Shown: one piece after another, positions 2,571 through 20,195 of the stretch
Layout of the letters: each line of letters opens with the position of its first letter
How positions within the stretch are numbered: position 1 is the first letter of the stretch
Source of the DNA: a virus
Virus record (IMG/VR): IMGVR_UViG_3300010885_002828
Span: 1 to 23,348 of that record
Reading direction: 5' to 3' (one strand)
DNA: 23,348 bases
Translations under genes and position numbers: made by a program
The notes under the pieces: model-generated
What the model saw: only the letters and a program-made list of their open reading frames with translations
Told to the model about the DNA's origin: nothing
Databases searched by the model: none

Positions 2571-3605
2571 GTGTCCCTGATTATTCAGCAATGGTTCGAC
2601 CGTGACATGGTGGCCCCTACGGGGGCCAGTCCTGACCTGACGATTGCCCTTTCCGGCATCCAGGTAACGGCCACCGCGGGCACTCCGGTTCCGGCGTTTG
2701 CTATCCCCCTCGTCGGGATTGCCGTCACCGCATCAGCCGGGACTCTCGTCCCCACGTTCTCTATCCCCCTGACAGGCATAGCGGTCACAGGAAGCGCTGG
2801 GACGCTGGTAGCCAACTTTGCGATCCCGCTGGGTGGCATTGAGGTCACGGTCTCAGCCGGGACGGTGACGTATTCGGCAGCATCGGACCTCACGATTGCA
2901 CTCTCGGGCATCGCGGTCACCACCTCCGCCGGGACGCTTGTACCGGCATTCGGCATTCCCCTCGTCGGACAGTCGGTAACAGCCTCTACGGGCACCGTAG
3001 CGCCCGCTATGGGCATCCCGGCCAGCGGGCAGTCCGTCACTGTCAGTGCGGGCACGGTCGTCCCCGACATCGCCATACCGATTGTAGGACAGGCAGTCGC
3101 GGCTGATGCGGGAACCGTCACGTATTCGGTGGCTGGCGACCTGACGATCGCCCTGACCGGTATTGAGGTAACCGCCACCGCGGGGACGATTATCTATGTC
3201 ACAGAGGGCGAATCAACCGGCCCGACCCCCTCTGGTGGCTACTGGTGGGTCAGGTACGAAGCAGAGCGGGAGCGAAGACGCCGCAGACGCAGGGAACTTG
3301 AAGATCTAGAAGACGATCGGGAGCGGATAGCAGATGCGCAGGCCCGAGAGATTGCCCTTCTCCTGCAAGAACAGGAACGGCAGGACGCAAGGCGCGAGGA
3401 GTTGGCGCGGCTTTCTAGCTTGGTGGAAGCCTACACGTCGTCAAAAACGGATGGCGAACTAAGCCCAAGAGTGCTGAAGGCGATAGAGAAGGCCGCACAG
3501 AAGCAGACAGAGTGGGCTTTGATGGCCCTTGAACGCGAACTCAAAGCAGCGGAAGAAGAGGAAGAATTCACCCTTCACGCCCTATGGTTAACCCTTAATG
3601 ACTGA
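2571..3605 (+). CDS. Repeat-built fibre-like protein with coiled-coil C-terminus, 344 aa
   Basis: The protein starts at GTG three bases after the preceding stop, with only a weak ribosome site, so it is probably translated by coupling. Residues 25-208 are nine units of a beta repeat of about 20 residues (pattern I-P-L-x-G-I/Q-x-V-T-x-S-A-G-T-x-V-P). Residues 224-228 are aromatic, a run of seven Arg follows (235-241), and then a highly charged helix of about 90 residues likely to form a coiled coil. The architecture, a beta stalk then a helical bundle, resembles phage fibre or whisker proteins. The final codons overlap the next gene by eight bases. Function is inferred; no enzymatic motif is present. 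Confidence 0.68.
   Translation: MSLIIQQWFDRDMVAPTGASPDLTIALSGIQVTATAGTPVPAFAIPLVGIAVTASAGTLVPTFSIPLTGIAVTGSAGTLVANFAIPLGGIEVTVSAGTVTYSAASDLTIALSGIAVTTSAGTLVPAFGIPLVGQSVTASTGTVAPAMGIPASGQSVTVSAGTVVPDIAIPIVGQAVAADAGTVTYSVAGDLTIALTGIEVTATAGTIIYVTEGESTGPTPSGGYWWVRYEAERERRRRRRRELEDLEDDRERIADAQAREIALLLQEQERQDARREELARLSSLVEAYTSSKTDGELSPRVLKAIEKAAQKQTEWALMALERELKAAEEEEEFTLHALWLTLND
2634..3194 (+). repeat. Higher-order coding repeat, 60-nt units in 252-nt superunits
   Basis: At protein level, units of 20, 20, 20 and 24 residues make an 84-residue block that occurs twice and begins a third time. The block start, DLTIAL, recurs at residues 22, 106 and 190, that is at 2634, 2886 and 3138, exactly 252 nt apart. 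Each fourth unit has a four-residue extension ending in S/G-D-L-T. The DNA copies are diverged, so the repeat is old or under selection for protein shape rather than a recent slippage product. Confidence 0.85.
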
Positions 3606-14001: not shown

Positions 14002-14411
14002 CCCTTCCCGCTGTCCGTGAAAAAATCACGGAACTGGAAAAGGCAATTCAGGCTGTTCCCCTAGACCAGCAGCTTACCTTCGAGAACTTGCACAGCTTTT
14101 GCCCCGGCCTGTATGCCCGCACGGTGTTCATGCCTGCCGGGTCTGTCTTGACAAGCAAGATCCACAAGACACAGCACTTCTTCGTGGTCACTAAGGGCTC
14201 TTGCACGGTCTCGAACTCACACGGACAAAGGGAGCTGATTGCAGCCCCTTACCTTGGAGTGACCATGCCGGGGACTAAAAGGGCTTTGCTGATCCACGAG
14301 GATTGCATCTGGACGACCTTCCACGCCACTGAGCTGACGGATGTGGCAGAGATTGAACGCACGATATTGGCGGAGTCTTTCGAGGCTTTCGACGCGGAGA
14401 ATGATCTATGA
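13965..14411 (+). CDS. Cupin-fold protein, 148 aa
   Basis: A single double-stranded beta-helix is visible. The first cupin motif reads IHKTQHFFVVTKGSCTV (residues 66-82) with H67 and H71 as possible metal ligands, followed by GQREL and the P-G-T-x-R/H-type turn (MPGTKRALLI, 101-110), then H111 and H120. A helical N-terminus (residues 17-30) precedes it. The metal site is plausible but not fully canonical. Cupins include sugar isomerases, oxygenases and purely structural domains, so the reaction is unknown. It occupies the region where P22 has gp14. It overlaps its neighbours on both sides, which argues it belongs to the late operon. Confidence 0.7.
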   Translation: MDNSAVSPFKPVALPAVREKITELEKAIQAVPLDQQLTFENLHSFCPGLYARTVFMPAGSVLTSKIHKTQHFFVVTKGSCTVSNSHGQRELIAAPYLGVTMPGTKRALLIHEDCIWTTFHATELTDVAEIERTILAESFEAFDAENDL

Positions 14412-15331
14412 CTTTCTGGGCAGCCGGTGCATCGGCAGTTGCGACGATTGGCTCTGCCGCTTATGCGGCTAACGCAGCGGGCAAGGCAGCAGATGCGTCT
14501 GCTTCTGGAGCCAATCAAGCCAGCCAGTTATCAAACAGCCAGTTCCAGCAGACTCAAGCCAATTTGGCGCCGTGGAGGACAACGGGAGCCAGCGCACTGA
14601 GTCAGCTCGGCTCATTGTTCGGTCTACAGACATCGACGCCAGAGCAGTTTGCAGGCGCGCAGCCCGTAACCGTGGGGGACAGTCAGCTTCCCCCCGGAAC
14701 GCAGCTACAGCCGGCTGGTAATGGCTGGTATGACGTAACGCTGAACGGGCAGAACTTGGGCGTGCTGCGTCCTGGCGGGGCCAATGGCCGGTTCGTGAGT
14801 AACGGTACGCCGATTCCTGCCACCAGCGCAGGGCCCTCGGCGGCTACAGGTGCAACGCCTGCCGGTGCGCCCAACATGAATGCGTTCACCGCGTCACCCG
14901 GCTACGACTTCCGTCGTACTGAGGGAATGCGGGGGATTGAGCGGACGGCGGCAGCTCGAGGTGGGGCGTTCTCTGGCAATGCCCTGCGCGCCCTGACCGA
15001 CTTCAACAGCAACCTCGCCTCGGGTGAGTTCGGCAACTACGTCAACCAGCTTTCTAACATCGCGGGGCTTGGCCAGAACGCCACGAACGCAACCGGGACG
15101 TTCGGCCAGAACGCAGCCAATACCCAAGGCCAGAACGCGCTTTACGCTGGTAACGCCCGTGCCTCGGGGATTGAGAATCAGGGCAACATCTACGGGCAGG
15201 CGATCAACGGGTTGGGAAACATTGCCGGCTATTACGGACAGAATAAATCGCCACAGCCTTATGGCGGGACTGGCTATGGCAGCGGTCAGATCCCCTATGG
15301 AACCCCACCCTACGCTCCGAGGAACGCATAA
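14408..15331 (+). CDS. Probable DNA ejection/transfer protein 1 (gp7 position), 307 aa
   Basis: The start overlaps the cupin stop by ATGA. The N-terminus is a hydrophobic Ala/Gly helix (residues 3-27) without a cleavage site. A helix with NSQFQQTQANLAPWRTTGASAL and a Gly/Pro-rich middle follow. The region from about residue 160 to 225 (FTASPGYDFRRTEGMRGIE, then AAARGGAFSGNALRAL and EFGNYVNQL) is a block I recognise as conserved in phage internal or ejection proteins. The C-terminus is rich in Gly, Asn and Gln repeats. Such proteins leave the head with the DNA and help form the channel across the envelope. The role is based on this block and on the P22-like position. Confidence 0.75.
   Translation: MTFWAAGASAVATIGSAAYAANAAGKAADASASGANQASQLSNSQFQQTQANLAPWRTTGASALSQLGSLFGLQTSTPEQFAGAQPVTVGDSQLPPGTQLQPAGNGWYDVTLNGQNLGVLRPGGANGRFVSNGTPIPATSAGPSAATGATPAGAPNMNAFTASPGYDFRRTEGMRGIERTAAARGGAFSGNALRALTDFNSNLASGEFGNYVNQLSNIAGLGQNATNATGTFGQNAANTQGQNALYAGNARASGIENQGNIYGQAINGLGNIAGYYGQNKSPQPYGGTGYGSGQIPYGTPPYAPRNA
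15071..15138 (+). repeat. Three copies of an 11-base direct repeat
   Basis: GGCCAGAACGC occurs at 15071-15081, 15104-15114 and 15128-15138, each encoding a Gly-Gln-Asn turn inside the ejection-type protein. The copies are spaced 33 and 24 bases apart, in frame, and probably arose by local duplication of a low-complexity segment. Confidence 0.7.
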
Positions 15332-16531
15332 ATGGCAGTCGTAGCTGGTCAACCGTTCAACGCCTTCTTGCAGGGCCGTCAGGCCCGTCAGCAAGAGGAC
15401 TACACCACCACCCGTAATGCGCTTGCCAATCAGGAACTGGCTAACGCGCCTACTGATATGGCAAACCGCAACAAGCTCATGGACCTTCAGATTCAGGGCG
15501 CACAGCAGGGACTTGACCAAGGTGCGGCCAATGCCACGCGGGGGGGCGAGGAGCGGTTGCTGAATCAGGCGCTCTCAGAAGCGCAGTTCGTTCAAAGTAA
15601 TCCCGCTTCTATCTCTCAAATGCGGCCTGAAATGCAGCAACGGGCGCGTGAGCAGCTTGGGGATAGTTTCAATGACCCGCGGGCGCTATCTCAGTGGGCA
15701 GGCACTATGGTTGCGGGCATTTCGGCAAGGCTTGGTAAGGGGCCTGCTGCGCCTATTCCGCAGTGGAAAACAGAGACAAGACCTGATGGCTCCACATACC
15801 AGGTAAACAGTGCGACCAATGAAACGAAGCTAGTTCAGGGCAGGACGCCTGCAAAGGGAAATGGAATCACTTTCACCAATGCTGACGGCAGCACAGTGCA
15901 GATCGGTGGCTCCGGTGATGGCGGTGGCGTTGGCGCTCAAGATTTGTCGCCTGCCACAAAAACAAAGCTGCAAGAGTCTATCGTAACGTCCACGGATCAG
16001 CTCGATCGGCTTAATAGCATTGGATCTGGATTCGATCCCCAGTTCCTTCAGATTCCAGGCCGACTTAAAGCCGGGGCTTTGAAAATCAAGGATCTTGCTG
16101 GCGGCGCACTTGGGAACATGACGCCTGATGAAAGCAAGTTTCTAGCTGACTTCTCTACCTTCAGAGCAGAAGGCGCAAAGAATCTGTCCGCCATCTTCAA
16201 CCAATTGAGCGGCGCAGCGGTCAGCCCGACTGAAGAAGTAAGACTGAGAAAGGGCATTCCTAACGATGAGGATTCGCCAACGCAGTGGATGGCTAAATAC
16301 AAGTCGTCTGTCAAGGATTCAAGCCGCGCAATCATGCGGGCGAATTGGGCGCTCAAGAACGGAATCGGCGTCAAGAGCGTAGCAGACCTATCAAAGGCCA
16401 TGCCGCTAAATGGTATTGACTCTGTATATGAGGGCCGAGCAAATGCAATTTGGCAGGAACTAGGCGGAAATTCAGAGACGAAAGCGCAGGCAGTAAACCA
16501 AGCTAGGCAGGAGTTCGGTCTTGGCCGATAA
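15332..16531 (+). CDS. Probable DNA ejection protein 2 (gp20 position), 399 aa
   Basis: The gene starts directly after the previous stop, with GAGGAA seven bases upstream. The N-terminal 130 residues are a Gln/Ala/Arg-rich helix series (GRQARQQEDY ... NRNKLMDLQIQGAQQGLDQ). The middle (150-205) is a beta-prone Gly-rich linker with TYQVNSATNE and GNGITFTNADG. The C-terminal 190 residues are helical again, with ESIVTSTDQLDRLNSIG and EEVRLRKGIPND. This three-part layout is common in phage internal proteins that act as scaffolds for the ejection channel. No catalytic motif is apparent. Function is inferred from layout and position. Confidence 0.68.
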   Translation: MAVVAGQPFNAFLQGRQARQQEDYTTTRNALANQELANAPTDMANRNKLMDLQIQGAQQGLDQGAANATRGGEERLLNQALSEAQFVQSNPASISQMRPEMQQRAREQLGDSFNDPRALSQWAGTMVAGISARLGKGPAAPIPQWKTETRPDGSTYQVNSATNETKLVQGRTPAKGNGITFTNADGSTVQIGGSGDGGGVGAQDLSPATKTKLQESIVTSTDQLDRLNSIGSGFDPQFLQIPGRLKAGALKIKDLAGGALGNMTPDESKFLADFSTFRAEGAKNLSAIFNQLSGAAVSPTEEVRLRKGIPNDEDSPTQWMAKYKSSVKDSSRAIMRANWALKNGIGVKSVADLSKAMPLNGIDSVYEGRANAIWQELGGNSETKAQAVNQARQEFGLGR

Positions 16532-18539
16532 AATCACATTTGATGACGCATTCAAGGAGGATAAGACCGCTCCAAAAGCGGGTCGAATCACCTTCGATGA
16601 TGCGCTCAAGTCTATGGATACAAACCCTGCTCCAGAGGCAGGGCGTCTTTTCCAGCGACCACCTGAAGAGGCAAAGCCAGCAACTAACGTCAATTTCGGA
16701 GCCTCACTCAAGGCTGGCTTGGTAGAGGATGAAACGACAAAGCGCAGGCTAATCGCTGATTCACTGTTCCCGAATGACCCAAAGGGAATCGACAGGGTAG
16801 GGTTTATCGGTGGCGTACCCGCATTCCTGAACGACAAAGGAGAGGTACAAAAGGTATCCCCTGGCATCGCTCGCTTTGGCGCAGGGGTTATTGCAAACGC
16901 ACCGGAAGCCATTGGTGGAGCTGTAGGCGCAACGGCTGGCCCGTTTGGAGCAACATTAGGCTCCGTTGGCGCTAGGGGAATAAAGCGAGCTGCTGCCGGT
17001 CTCATCTTCAATGAGCCGCAGACAATCAAGGGGAACATGATTGATCTTGGCAAGGAAGCTGCCATTAACCTTACCGCTGAAGGGGCTGCATGGGGACTCT
17101 CTAAGATAGGGGATCGTGGGAAAACCATTGATTTCAGCCCTGCAAATTCACAAGCGGCAGAGCAGACGGTAAATCAGACGCAAGCATCAACCGGCATCAA
17201 GCTCGATCTTGCCCAAGCCTCTGGCGATAGAAGGATGATCGGACTGCGAGCCTATGCTGGCCGGTTTCCGGGGAAGTCGGCAGAAATCCTACAGGCCGCA
17301 GATGAAGCGACTAGCGGTCAATTCGAGTCAGCAACCAATCGGATGCTTGATCTTGTGGCAACGTCGAAGCCATCAGAGGTTGCAGGGCAGAATGGAATCA
17401 ATGCGGCGCAGCTTGCTATTGATGCCGTAAAGGAAGCAAGGGATAAGGCTGTTTCCCCATACTATGAGCAAGCAAAGAAGGTAGTCGTTGGATCTGATGT
17501 AGTAAGCGACATTTCCAGAGATCCGCTAATCGCAAGGGCAGCAAAGCGAGTCAAAATAGATCCCGTCTACCAACGGAACCTTGAAGGGCTTGGCGAGGAT
17601 TCTGTTGGGTTCTGGCATCAGGTCAAGAGGAACCTTGACTCCGGCTACCAGACTGCTGCGGCTGCTGGAAACAATACGGCGGCGAGAGAATACGCTGATG
17701 CTGCGTCGCAGTTGAATAAGCGCCTTGCTGCTGCAAGTCCTGAATACGCTGCCGCTAATCAGTTCTATGCAAAGACAACTGAAAGCATCGTTACCCCGCT
17801 TGAGGATAGCGTTGTCGGGATTCTTGCAAAGATCAAGAACCCGAAGGCAGCGACAGCCGCAGCAAAGATATTCTCAGACCCTAACGTAACTGCAAAACAG
17901 ATTGCAGACGCTAGATCCGTAATTTCCGTTCAGAGTCCTGACGCATGGGGCGACCTCACGCGGCAATGGCTTGGGCAGAAGTTCAATCAGGCGTTAAAAG
18001 AGACGCAGACCGGCGAAGTGGTTAATGCTGCCGGGAAGTTCAGGCAATCGGTATTCGGCACGCCCGCAGACAAGGCAAAAATGCAGGCGATGCTCCCGAG
18101 TGGAGCAACGCAGTTGTTTGACGACCTGATGGGCGCAGCGGAAAAACTAGCCAGCACCCCTCTTGCTGGTTCAAATACGATGCGCGACACAGAGATCAAA
18201 GACCAGCTAAAGGGAACCGCAATCCCGCTCTTCAAGTGGATCTTTAGTCCACGGCAGTCAATTACGACAGCCGCAGAGCAGCGGGCGCTGGAGAACGGGA
18301 CGACTCAAATCGCAGAGGCGCTTGTTGACCCTGCGAAACGATCCCAGCTCCGTCAGGTGGTCAAGATGGCCCCATCAACTAGGCAGGCTATCCTAATCAC
18401 ATCAATTTTGACGGCTCAGGTTCCAGCCCGAGTTGCCGCATCTTCCGGCGATACACCGCCACCCGCACTAATGAGTAACCAGCGGTCAGTGGTAGAACAA
18501 CAAAGAAACCGCCTATTGCCCACAGCAGGAGGCCAGTAA
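16521..18539 (+). CDS. Probable DNA ejection protein 3 (gp16 position), 672 aa
   Basis: The start is TTG with GGAG at 16510-16513, seven bases upstream, and it overlaps the previous gene by 11 bases. The N-terminus carries two copies of a short motif, KITFDDAFK and RITFDDALK (around residues 4-31). Residues about 113-160 form a Gly/Ala-rich segment (FGAGVIANAPEAIGGAVGAT and following) able to enter a membrane. The rest is helical and Ala-rich, with no clear lytic transglycosylase motif. P22 gp16 (about 609 residues) is a membrane-active ejection protein of similar size. The last 143 bases overlap a minus-strand gene, and a terminator follows at 18643-18664. Confidence 0.75.
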   Translation: MADKITFDDAFKEDKTAPKAGRITFDDALKSMDTNPAPEAGRLFQRPPEEAKPATNVNFGASLKAGLVEDETTKRRLIADSLFPNDPKGIDRVGFIGGVPAFLNDKGEVQKVSPGIARFGAGVIANAPEAIGGAVGATAGPFGATLGSVGARGIKRAAAGLIFNEPQTIKGNMIDLGKEAAINLTAEGAAWGLSKIGDRGKTIDFSPANSQAAEQTVNQTQASTGIKLDLAQASGDRRMIGLRAYAGRFPGKSAEILQAADEATSGQFESATNRMLDLVATSKPSEVAGQNGINAAQLAIDAVKEARDKAVSPYYEQAKKVVVGSDVVSDISRDPLIARAAKRVKIDPVYQRNLEGLGEDSVGFWHQVKRNLDSGYQTAAAAGNNTAAREYADAASQLNKRLAAASPEYAAANQFYAKTTESIVTPLEDSVVGILAKIKNPKAATAAAKIFSDPNVTAKQIADARSVISVQSPDAWGDLTRQWLGQKFNQALKETQTGEVVNAAGKFRQSVFGTPADKAKMQAMLPSGATQLFDDLMGAAEKLASTPLAGSNTMRDTEIKDQLKGTAIPLFKWIFSPRQSITTAAEQRALENGTTQIAEALVDPAKRSQLRQVVKMAPSTRQAILITSILTAQVPARVAASSGDTPPPALMSNQRSVVEQQRNRLLPTAGGQ

Positions 18540-18639
18540 TCCCGCTGTCGATGTAGCCCTCTGCCGCCATTCTGATTGCCATCGCTGTGCCGGCAATCAT
18601 TTGTGACTTGTAAAACCAGCCTTTGAATTGACTGCTCAT
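18397..18639 (-). CDS. Small inner-membrane protein, possible SieA-like exclusion protein
   Basis: This is the only minus-strand gene I support. The chosen ATG (first base 18639) has a perfect GGAGG (18648-18652 on the minus strand) eight bases upstream; an upstream in-frame start at 18690 lacks this. The 80-residue product has a basic-aromatic N-terminus, a moderately hydrophobic stretch (14-30), a strong hydrophobic segment (33-62, GITGLLLWAIGGFFVVLPL and beyond) and a basic tail (YRRKMRQ), so it is probably an inner-membrane protein. It converges on and overlaps the 3' end of the ejection gene by 143 bases. P22 carries sieA, an opposite-strand membrane protein gene, at the same place. The product is much shorter than SieA (about 160), so only the position matches. 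Confidence 0.62.
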   Translation of the reverse strand: MSSQFKGWFYKSQMIAGTAMAIRMAAEGYIDSGITGLLLWAIGGFFVVLPLTAGYSLVRVAVYRRKMRQLGLEPEPSKLM

Positions 18640-18642
18640 TAG

Positions 18643-18664
18643 ACCCGCCTCCGAGCGGGTTTTT
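18643..18664 (+). terminator. Intrinsic terminator after the ejection genes
   Basis: ACCCGC (18643-18648) pairs with GCGGGT (18655-18660) around a six-base loop, followed by T to 18664. It should end transcription from the head and ejection genes before the tailspike. On the opposite strand the same hairpin carries the ribosome site of the small membrane protein gene in its loop. Confidence 0.8.
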
Positions 18665-18680
18665 GCATCCTGGAGCCTAA

Positions 18681-18708
18681 ATAATGCCACAAACCTTCGT
18701 CATTCCAA
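18681..18708 (-). promoter_or_regulatory. Weak candidate promoter for the minus-strand membrane gene
   Basis: Reading the minus strand, TTGGAA (18708-18703) and CATTAT (18686-18681) are separated by 16 bases; each matches the consensus at four of six positions. The inferred start of transcription, near 18674, would give a short leader containing the hairpin. It lies over the start of the tailspike gene. Matches of this quality occur by chance. Confidence 0.22.
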
Positions 18709-20195
18709 AGCAGGTTGGACTCATCGGCGGGGCGGTTGCGCCTGCGTCGGTGCTGCGGTTCTACCAGTCTGGGACGAGTACGCCTCAATTCGTATACACC
18801 GATTCGGGCCTGACTTCAGGCGTCACCAGCATCACGGCTGATTCTTCTGGAGTCTTTGCGAAGGTATATCTTAATCCCAACGCAACGGCAAATTACAGGG
18901 TAACCCTCGAAACCAGCGCGGGCGTTGTTACATGGACTGAGGACGACATTGCCAAGAATCCACTGACTCAAGCCTCTGTTGGCGAAACCCTCTACCCCCG
19001 CACGGCCGCCGAGATCGCGGCGGGCGTCACGCCGACCAACTACACCTATGAACCTGGGGATGTGCGACGGTATGGAGCCGACCCAACAGGCGTCTCCAGC
19101 AGCACGACCGCAATTCAATCTGCCATCACGGTTGGCTCTACTGTCTATTTCCCTGCTGGAACGTATCTAGCTCAGGGCTTGTCGCAATCAACCAGCTATC
19201 AGCGGCTGATTGCGCTTGGCGAAGTGACCATAAAGAAGAACGCCAACGGCACTATCCTGACCTGCACAGGCGATAACGTAGAGCTGAACGGGATTGGCTT
19301 TAGGGGTGATGCGTCATCCCCGACCTACACGGGCAACGGTGTTCTGATGAGCGGGGAAAACCCAAGGCTCATCAACTGCGGTGTCAGGTGGATTTCAGGG
19401 GTTCCGCTCACCTGCACCAAGAACCATGCCCAGATCATCGGTACGTGTGACCTGTACCAGACAACCGACGCGACTGGCACCGGATATGACATCGTAATCG
19501 GCACCAGCGGGACCGCAACGCTTTATCACCAACTGATCGGGATTTACTCCTCTCAGGCCACGGGTGGAATAAAGCTGATTGACACCGGCTCGCACGTTAT
19601 CTCGGGCGGGCAATTCGGGAAGCTGTTCATTGATGCGGGCACTTCTCCAGCCGGTGTCAATGGCGGGATGACTCAGGGAGCAAGAATCCTGGGGGCCGTA
19701 ACCGTCGAAATTTCCAGTGCAGTTTTCAGCGGCAACCAATTCGGCACAGTTGCCATTGCATTCGCGGCAGGTACGTCAGGTTGCTCGATGGATCGGTCGA
19801 ACATTTACGCGACCGGCGCGACGATCACGAACGCAGGCAACGACAACAACTTGATCGAACGGCAGCAAAGCACGGGCACCGGGTGCCAGATTAAAGTTGG
19901 CCCTGACTCTGCCGCAAACGGCGTAATCGTAGATATTTCCACGGGTTTGCAGACGTTCCCTTACAACATCAGCATTCCCAACACCTGCGCCTACAAACTG
20001 TTAAACGCTGCCGGAACAAATGCGGCGCAAGTCAACATGACCTCTGGGGACAATTTCCAGATGACAAACAATTACGGCGCAATTCAATTTTCGGCGTCTG
20101 GCGGGGTATACCAGTTCGTATCCTTGCCAACTTCGGCGGCGGGCTTGCCAGCGGGCGCGTTGTGGAACAGCGCGGGCACGGTAAAGGTGGCGTAG
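18684..20195 (+). CDS. Tailspike with pectate-lyase-like beta-helix
   Basis: This is the receptor-binding spike. Residues 1-88 are the common N-terminal attachment domain (QVGLIGGAVAPASVLRFYQSG, then VTSITADSSGVF and ATANYRVTLE). A conserved linker (YPRTAAEIAAGVTPTNYTY, 104-122) leads into the beta-helix, which opens with the GDVRRYGADPTG motif (125-136) typical of Pectate_lyase_3 proteins. Short beta rungs follow to about residue 400. The C-terminus (FVSLPTSAAGLPAGALWNSA) is a tag seen at the end of many phage tail proteins. It probably binds and cleaves a surface polysaccharide; catalytic residues cannot be assigned by eye. At 503 residues it is shorter than P22 gp9 (667). GGAG lies eight bases before the ATG, just after the terminator. 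Confidence 0.9.
   Translation: MPQTFVIPKQVGLIGGAVAPASVLRFYQSGTSTPQFVYTDSGLTSGVTSITADSSGVFAKVYLNPNATANYRVTLETSAGVVTWTEDDIAKNPLTQASVGETLYPRTAAEIAAGVTPTNYTYEPGDVRRYGADPTGVSSSTTAIQSAITVGSTVYFPAGTYLAQGLSQSTSYQRLIALGEVTIKKNANGTILTCTGDNVELNGIGFRGDASSPTYTGNGVLMSGENPRLINCGVRWISGVPLTCTKNHAQIIGTCDLYQTTDATGTGYDIVIGTSGTATLYHQLIGIYSSQATGGIKLIDTGSHVISGGQFGKLFIDAGTSPAGVNGGMTQGARILGAVTVEISSAVFSGNQFGTVAIAFAAGTSGCSMDRSNIYATGATITNAGNDNNLIERQQSTGTGCQIKVGPDSAANGVIVDISTGLQTFPYNISIPNTCAYKLLNAAGTNAAQVNMTSGDNFQMTNNYGAIQFSASGGVYQFVSLPTSAAGLPAGALWNSAGTVKVA

What the first reader, a model, noticed from the sequence alone, without database searches (positions are those of the whole stretch)
18397..18708. Opposite-strand small membrane protein at the position of P22 sieA
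The only supported minus-strand gene lies exactly between the gp16-position ejection gene and the tailspike. It has a perfect GGAGG at eight-base spacing and encodes a strongly hydrophobic 80-residue protein. In P22 the same slot holds sieA, an opposite-strand inner-membrane protein that blocks DNA entry of superinfecting phages. There is no obvious sequence likeness and the protein is half the size, so this may be an undescribed exclusion protein using the same genomic niche.
Basis: partly seen in the sequence, partly recalled or inferred. Interest (0 to 1): 0.72.

Follow-up and report, generated by a model that had tools for sequence, protein, structure and literature searches.

The report
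Tiny reverse-strand phage membrane gene
A short-tailed temperate phage carries, between its DNA-injection genes and its tailspike gene, a tiny backward-facing gene for a membrane protein; most distant relatives with a gap at that point carry a different tiny membrane gene there, which suggests a hidden hotspot for proteins that may keep rival phages out of the cell.

Summary
An 80-aa ORF (18397-18639, minus) starts at an ATG eight bases behind GGAGG, overlaps the last 143 nt of the gp16-position ejection gene, and encodes a predicted helical-hairpin membrane protein. Codon-preserving and dinucleotide-preserving nulls reject chance. The protein has no detectable homologue and is not SieA. The GGAGG also lies in the loop of a plus-strand terminator-like hairpin.

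The slot proved more interesting than the protein. Among non-redundant P22-like phages with an 80-450 nt gap between the third ejection gene and the next gene, 23 of 28 carry a short minus-strand hydrophobic ORF, against 14 of 189 other gaps (Fisher 7e-17; 18 of 22 among loci not inspected beforehand). Dinucleotide shuffles predict 0.6 of 27; 22 are seen. These ORFs are mostly unrelated, match no phage family, and also occur in Xanthomonas and Stenotrophomonas prophages. The variable region there ('ant moron', including sieA) is known in enteric P22-like phages; I found no report of this class of mini membrane genes.

Best explanation: a moron encoding an inner-membrane protein, most likely superinfection exclusion acting on incoming ejection proteins. 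Function is untested. Many near-complete contigs carrying such ORFs show no tyrosine integrase, which weakens a purely prophage-based reading.

The parts
18397..18639 (-). 80-aa small membrane protein gene (MSSQFKGWFYKSQMIAGTAMAIRMAAEGYIDSGITGLLLWAIGGFFVVLPLTAGYSLVRVAVYRRKMRQLGLEPEPSKLM)
   Evidence: ORF; coding score; antisense null; shuffles; AF2 two helices
18648..18652 (-). GGAGG ribosome-binding-site-like sequence, 8 nt before the ATG, lying in the loop of the plus-strand hairpin
   Evidence: same arrangement in L107 and L134
18642..18664 (+). Rho-independent-terminator-like hairpin GACCCGCCTCCGAGCGGGTTTTT between the minus gene's start and the spike gene
   Evidence: -12.1 kcal/mol, z -2.7; similar hairpins at this place in L081, L107, L134, L155, L195, L199 and L200
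18397..18539 (.). 143-nt overlap between the 3' ends of the convergent ejection gene and minus gene; the ejection protein's similarity to its nearest relative ends here
16521..18539 (+). Third ejection gene by position (P22 gene 16 slot), 672 aa
   Evidence: 38% identical to a protein at the same place in MW202691; identified by position only
15332..16531 (+). Second ejection gene by position (P22 gene 20 slot)
   Evidence: synteny
14408..15331 (+). gp7-like DNA ejection protein
   Evidence: phrog_598, E 4.9e-33
18684..20195 (+). Tailspike: conserved head-binding N-domain and pectate-lyase-like fold
   Evidence: PF12708 E 6e-10; N-domain relatives

Best explanation
The feature is a real, independently oriented accessory gene (a moron) inserted between the last ejection gene and the tailspike of a temperate P22-like phage. 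It encodes a small inner-membrane protein, probably a helical hairpin with both ends in the cytoplasm and a short acidic periplasmic turn. Most likely mechanism (inferred): made from the prophage or early in infection, it sits in the inner membrane and interferes with the conduit that incoming ejection proteins of related phages build there, so superinfecting DNA does not enter, functionally like P22 SieA. Late transcription of the plus strand runs antisense across it and would silence it when progeny are made; the plus-strand terminator-like hairpin behind its start would tune how much transcription reaches the tailspike gene. Shown here: the ORF, its non-random hydrophobicity, its place, and the recurrence of such ORFs at this place. 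Inferred: expression, membrane topology, exclusion.
For: ORF and RBS-like site; coding score of the non-overlapped part; antisense null. Same place and strand as P22 sieA; [quoted passage not shown] Temperate: integrase PF00589, repressor-like HTH, ERF. Recurrence: 23/28 slot gaps versus 14/189 other gaps, and 18/22 among loci not inspected beforehand; shuffles give 0.58 expected versus 22 observed of 27. Found in Xanthomonas and Stenotrophomonas prophages. Slot genes of other P22-like phages are under protein-level constraint: dN/dS 0.28 for an 81-aa two-helix Vibrio pair, 0.24 for an HkcB-like pair. In annotated phages most first minus genes behind gene 16 are membrane, secreted or lipoproteins from unrelated families.
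Against: No functional or expression data. No homologue of the protein itself, so its own conservation cannot be tested; weak hits in the family of the Xanthomonas prophage host were chance. No sigma-70-like promoter found upstream. The hairpin partly sequesters the RBS in the minus transcript. Only 5 of 13 slot-carrying contigs of 36 kb or more have a tyrosine integrase, versus 1 of 8 without a slot ORF (Fisher p 0.34). Slot proteins do not clearly track their ejection proteins, although exclusion aimed at one's own kind might predict that.
Confidence: 0.42

Rival explanations
1. A small membrane protein moron with a different lysogenic or early-infection role: altering host envelope physiology, blocking unrelated phages or a receptor, or host takeover. 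Same gene and topology, different target.
For: Real opposite-strand membrane gene. Slot contents in annotated phages are heterogeneous (lipoproteins, signal-peptide proteins, HkcB-like coiled coils, regulators), so the slot is not devoted to one function. Many slot-carrying contigs lack a detected tyrosine integrase.
Against: The one characterised membrane protein in this slot, SieA, acts on ejection proteins (PMC10883804). No positive evidence for another target.
Confidence: 0.3
2. A small hydrophobic toxin-like or lysis-modulating peptide (holin, antiholin or type I toxin type) silenced by the overlapping late transcript.
For: Size 38-134 aa (median 55), one or two helices, antisense overlap with the late operon (median 60 nt); weak structural similarity to assorted small phage membrane proteins including holins, none significant.
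Against: Lies opposite to the late operon, so late co-expression with the lysis genes is unlikely. No PADLOC, PHROG or Pfam match for the window protein.
Confidence: 0.12
3. Not a protein gene: the functional element is the terminator-like hairpin that meters late transcription into the tailspike, and the antisense ORF is incidental.
For: The hairpin recurs at this place in many relatives; P22's moron region is thought to modulate tailspike transcription (PMC2629481); GGAGG is the hairpin loop.
Against: A hairpin does not produce 40-130 codon hydrophobic frames: codon null p about 5e-5 jointly, shuffles 0.58 expected versus 22 observed, no plus-strand ORFs of this kind in the same gaps (0/28). 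Several slots have the ORF without such a hairpin.
Confidence: 0.08
4. A diverged or shortened true SieA homologue.
For: Same place and strand; [quoted passage not shown]
Against: No BLAST alignment to P22 SieA, no PHROG hit where P22 SieA hits phrog_7745 at 9e-109, motif FxRYPxEAxxFNK absent, half the size, fewer helices.
Confidence: 0.03

Closest known systems
P22 SieA (superinfection exclusion, phrog_7745)
   Same: Minus-strand gene between the third ejection gene and the tailspike of a temperate P22-like phage; predicted membrane protein without an obvious signal peptide.
   Different: 80 versus 162/164 aa, one or two versus three predicted helices, no sequence similarity, no SieA motif; overlaps the ejection gene by 143 nt instead of lying 22 nt beyond it; P22's neighbouring mnt/arc/ant genes are absent here.
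'ant moron' region of P22-like phages (PMC2629481)
   Same: Variable non-morphogenetic region between genes 16 and 9; contents differ from phage to phage; absent in some relatives.
   Different: Here it is reduced to a single tiny membrane gene plus a terminator-like hairpin; the described morons carry regulators and larger genes, and come from enteric hosts.
Vibrio phage 199E37-1 / 1.079.O 81-aa two-helix slot proteins
   Same: Same slot, strand, size and topology class; conserved with dN/dS 0.28.
   Different: No sequence similarity to the window protein; annotated only as 'TMhelix containing protein'.
HkcB-like proteins (HK620, epsilon34, 611R6)
   Same: First minus gene behind gene 16, with an N-terminal helix.
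   Different: Long coiled-coil-like soluble part; unrelated sequence.

Membership tests
SieA (P22 type) | Minus-strand gene between homologues of P22 genes 16 and 9 | tested here: met
   gene 16 equivalence is by position only
SieA (P22 type) | Sequence similarity, or the motif FxRYPxEAxxFNK | tested here: not met
   no PHROG match versus phrog_7745 for P22 SieA
SieA (P22 type) | About 160 aa with three transmembrane helices | tested here: not met
   80 aa; one strong hydropathy segment, two predicted helices
SieA (P22 type) | Blocks DNA injection of P22-like phages through gp16/gp20 | not testable with these tools
   Needs an infection assay
SieA (P22 type) | Expressed from the prophage of a temperate phage | tested here: inconclusive
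   Integrase and repressor-like genes present; no promoter found; expression not testable
Moron at the gene 16 / tailspike junction | Extra gene at this junction that relatives lack | tested here: met
   Slot empty in MW202691, L037 and L039; filled by other genes in L081 and many more
Moron at the gene 16 / tailspike junction | Own promoter and terminator | tested here: inconclusive
   Plus-strand terminator-like hairpin only; weak minus-strand terminator-like site at 18169-18151 inside the ejection gene, no promoter
Small opposite-strand slot membrane proteins (class described here) | Short minus-strand ORF covering the gap, with a hydrophobic segment of KD19 at least 1.75 | tested here: met
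   2.05; 23/28 slots versus 14/189 controls

The most novel reading that the evidence does not exclude
P22-like phages far beyond the enteric bacteria carry, between their ejection genes and tailspike, a hyper-diverse, largely unannotated class of opposite-strand mini membrane proteins (38-134 aa, median 55) that act as exclusion proteins against incoming ejection conduits; the window gene is one of them. The slot is then a place to find new exclusion proteins without sequence similarity.
Probability: 0.35. Interest if true: 0.8.

Novelty: new variant of a known kind. Interest (0 to 1): 0.62.

Why it matters
Exclusion proteins are hard to find because they are small, diverse and often unannotated. 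A position-and-strand rule that picks out a tiny membrane gene in most phages with a gap at this junction gives a direct list of candidates to test, and would show whether SieA is one case of a general strategy in which a phage keeps its door-closing gene beside the genes for its own DNA-injection machine. It also warns that gene callers may overlook these genes, since they overlap the ejection gene on the opposite strand.

Tried and rejected
Sequence homologues of the 80-aa protein: none in INPHARED, in IMG/VR other than the same virus, in 24 portal relatives or in one genome per species of GTDB. Weak hits in 11 of 395 genomes of the Xanthomonas/Stenotrophomonas family; those examined lay in unrelated frames or aligned only in part, and that number is what chance gives. 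PHROGs, Pfam, NCBIfam, PADLOC and PDB: nothing meaningful. Fold search of the single-sequence model: no match at E 0.001 or better. True SieA homology: rejected. The near-identical contig IMGVR_UViG_3300009163_000092 (10 mismatches in 23,348) is the same virus and gives no conservation evidence. Link between slot ORF and lysogeny: 5/13 versus 1/8 near-complete contigs with an integrase, not significant. Co-inheritance of slot protein and ejection protein: homologous in two of the five most similar slot pairs (L105-L107, L129-L157), overall inconclusive. My first relatives (MW202691, L037, L039) had an empty slot and suggested a one-off gene; the wider scans overturned that.

Full report
OBSERVATION. 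The minus-strand ORF is 18397-18639: ATG start, 80 codons, stop at 18397. GGAGG lies 8 nt before the ATG (18648-18652 on the plus strand, CCTCC). The ORF runs antisense to the last 143 nt of the 672-aa ejection-like gene 16521-18539 and fills most of the 144-nt gap before the tailspike gene at 18684. The protein has one strong hydrophobic segment (about residues 30-58, KD19 2.05); a single-sequence AlphaFold2 model gives two helices, 3-26 and 33-70 (mean pLDDT 75). Basic residues at both ends and an acidic turn between suggest both ends in the cytoplasm (inference).

IS IT MORE THAN CHANCE? A codon model trained on the phage's plus-strand genes scores the non-overlapped part 0.22, within the range of real genes, and this is the best of the six frames in the gap; the overlapped part scores -0.03. 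The hydrophobic segment lies largely in the overlap, so I resampled the ejection gene's tail with synonymous codons 20,000 times: the frame stayed open in 18.7%, and only 0.03% of those reached the observed hydropathy. The GGAGG is weaker evidence than it looks, because it is also the loop of a plus-strand terminator-like hairpin (-12.1 kcal/mol, z -2.7).

WHAT PHAGE IS THIS? Portal (P22_portal, E 3.5e-170), head closure Hc3 and a gp7-like ejection protein place it among P22-like phages. A 36.4 kb IMG/VR contig of the same virus (99.96% identical) adds a tyrosine integrase, an ERF protein and an HTH repressor-like gene, so it is temperate. The third ejection gene is recognised by position; its nearest relative in a named record is in MW202691 (38% identity). 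That alignment ends near residues 622-630, close to where the minus ORF's stop codon lies (residue 626), so the ejection protein's tail here is little more than the antisense of the minus gene: the footprint of an insertion (inference).

NEAREST RELATIVES. The slot is empty in MW202691 (ejection gene and spike overlap by one base), L037 and L039. But L081, with a gp7-like protein 53% identical, has the same layout with a different product: a 51-aa, two-helix minus ORF (TTG start, no clear RBS), overlapping the ejection gene by 62 nt, behind a plus-strand terminator-like hairpin and a spike start similar to the window's.

IS THE SLOT A HOTSPOT? I scanned IMG/VR with the spike N-domain (37 loci) and with the gp7-like protein (80 loci), and scored every gap of 80-450 nt between the third ejection gene and the next plus-strand gene by one rule: any minus ORF of at least 35 aa covering at least 40% of the gap, with its maximal 19-residue hydropathy. 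At a threshold of 1.75, 23 of 28 non-redundant slots pass against 14 of 189 other gaps in the same contigs (Fisher 7e-17; at 2.0, 18/28 versus 6/189); no plus-strand ORF in the slots passes. Six of those loci had been looked at before the rule was written; among the rest it is 18 of 22 (p 5e-14), or 17 of 21 without one near-duplicate. Shuffling each region with dinucleotides kept predicts 0.58 of 27 at 1.75; 22 are observed. Twenty-four non-redundant loci have a gap below 80 nt and fall outside the test. The ORFs are 38-134 aa (median 55) and overlap the ejection gene by a median of 60 nt. All-against-all similarity joins only a few pairs (L105-L107, L134-L155, L129-L157). None matches a PHROG at E 0.01; Pfam gives two isolated weak hits. 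Prophages of Xanthomonas sp. NCPPB 1128 and Stenotrophomonas sp. BIGb0135 carry such ORFs in the same slot (45 aa and 52 aa). In the window, L107 and L134 the minus gene's RBS-like sequence is the loop of the plus-strand hairpin.

ANNOTATED PHAGES. In P22 the slot's first gene is sieA. In other P22-like phages the first minus gene behind gene 16 is, variously, an HkcB-like protein with an N-terminal helix (epsilon34, 611R6), a lipoprotein (Brookers, Gally, 720R6), a signal-peptide protein (Emek), an 81-aa two-helix protein (Vibrio 199E37-1 and 1.079.O), a 61-aa N-terminal-helix protein (Vibrio D277) or a 106-aa one (N7); a few are not membrane proteins (Sf101, PVA1, 1.039.O), and in HF4s, Huey and BTP1 the slot is empty. 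Slot proteins of two of these families are under protein-level constraint: dN/dS 0.28 for the Vibrio pair and 0.24 for the HkcB-like pair. [quoted passage not shown] Six literature searches turned up no description of a general class of mini membrane genes in this slot; the library is limited to open-licence papers.

HOW IT PROBABLY WORKS. Shown: a non-random opposite-strand membrane ORF, its place, and the recurrence of such ORFs. Inferred: expression in lysogens or early infection, inner-membrane insertion, and interference with incoming ejection proteins. The convergent overlap implies that late transcription would oppose the gene's expression, which suits a function needed before, not during, particle production. 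The plus-strand hairpin would limit read-through into the tailspike gene; a comparable effect was proposed for P22 (PMC2629481).

WHAT SPEAKS AGAINST. There are no functional data and no homologue of the window protein itself. No promoter was found. Of contigs of at least 36 kb, 5 of 13 with a slot ORF and 1 of 8 without have a tyrosine integrase (p 0.34; the split into the two groups was made by hand); a prophage-only function would predict a clearer excess, although contigs can be incomplete and other lysogeny routes were not searched. Slot and ejection proteins do not clearly travel together.

VERDICT. The gene is real and ordinary in kind (a moron), new in sequence, not a SieA, and one instance of a positional class that appears to be undescribed. 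Exclusion is the leading but untested function.

Noticed in passing
window 2571-3605: 344-aa structural-looking protein made of tandem repeats of the type IPLxGIxVTxSAGTLVPxF; internal DNA repeats of 50-83 bp at 75-84% identity, followed by an arginine- and glutamate-rich helical tail.
   Followed up: no
L201/L202 (G026:C2:111248-111382 and 148518-148652): The Xanthomonas sp. NCPPB 1128 slot gene occurs twice, identical, 37,270 bp apart: two copies of the prophage in tandem, or an assembly duplication.
   Followed up: no
G001 (IMGVR_UViG_3300009163_000092), both ends: The contig ends in unusual homopolymer-rich sequence (long A and C runs), which may be assembly artefact; gene calls within the last 100 bp are unsafe.
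   Followed up: no
L035 15116-15796 (minus): The third-ejection-gene junction of this P22-like contig is followed by a 226-aa minus-strand ORF whose start resembles class 3 lipases, then by other minus-strand genes; a different kind of cargo at the same junction.
   Followed up: no
L126 14057-14281 (minus): The slot gene here looks like a lipoprotein (MKGIIIIAALALAGCAPK...), as in enteric phages Gally and Brookers, in an otherwise unrelated environmental phage.
   Followed up: partly
window 18640-18664; L081, L107, L134, L155, L195, L199, L200: A plus-strand terminator-like hairpin directly upstream of the spike's ribosome-binding site recurs in phages with unrelated slot genes, and also in L087 and L104, which have no slot ORF: probably a conserved control of tailspike expression.
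   Followed up: partly
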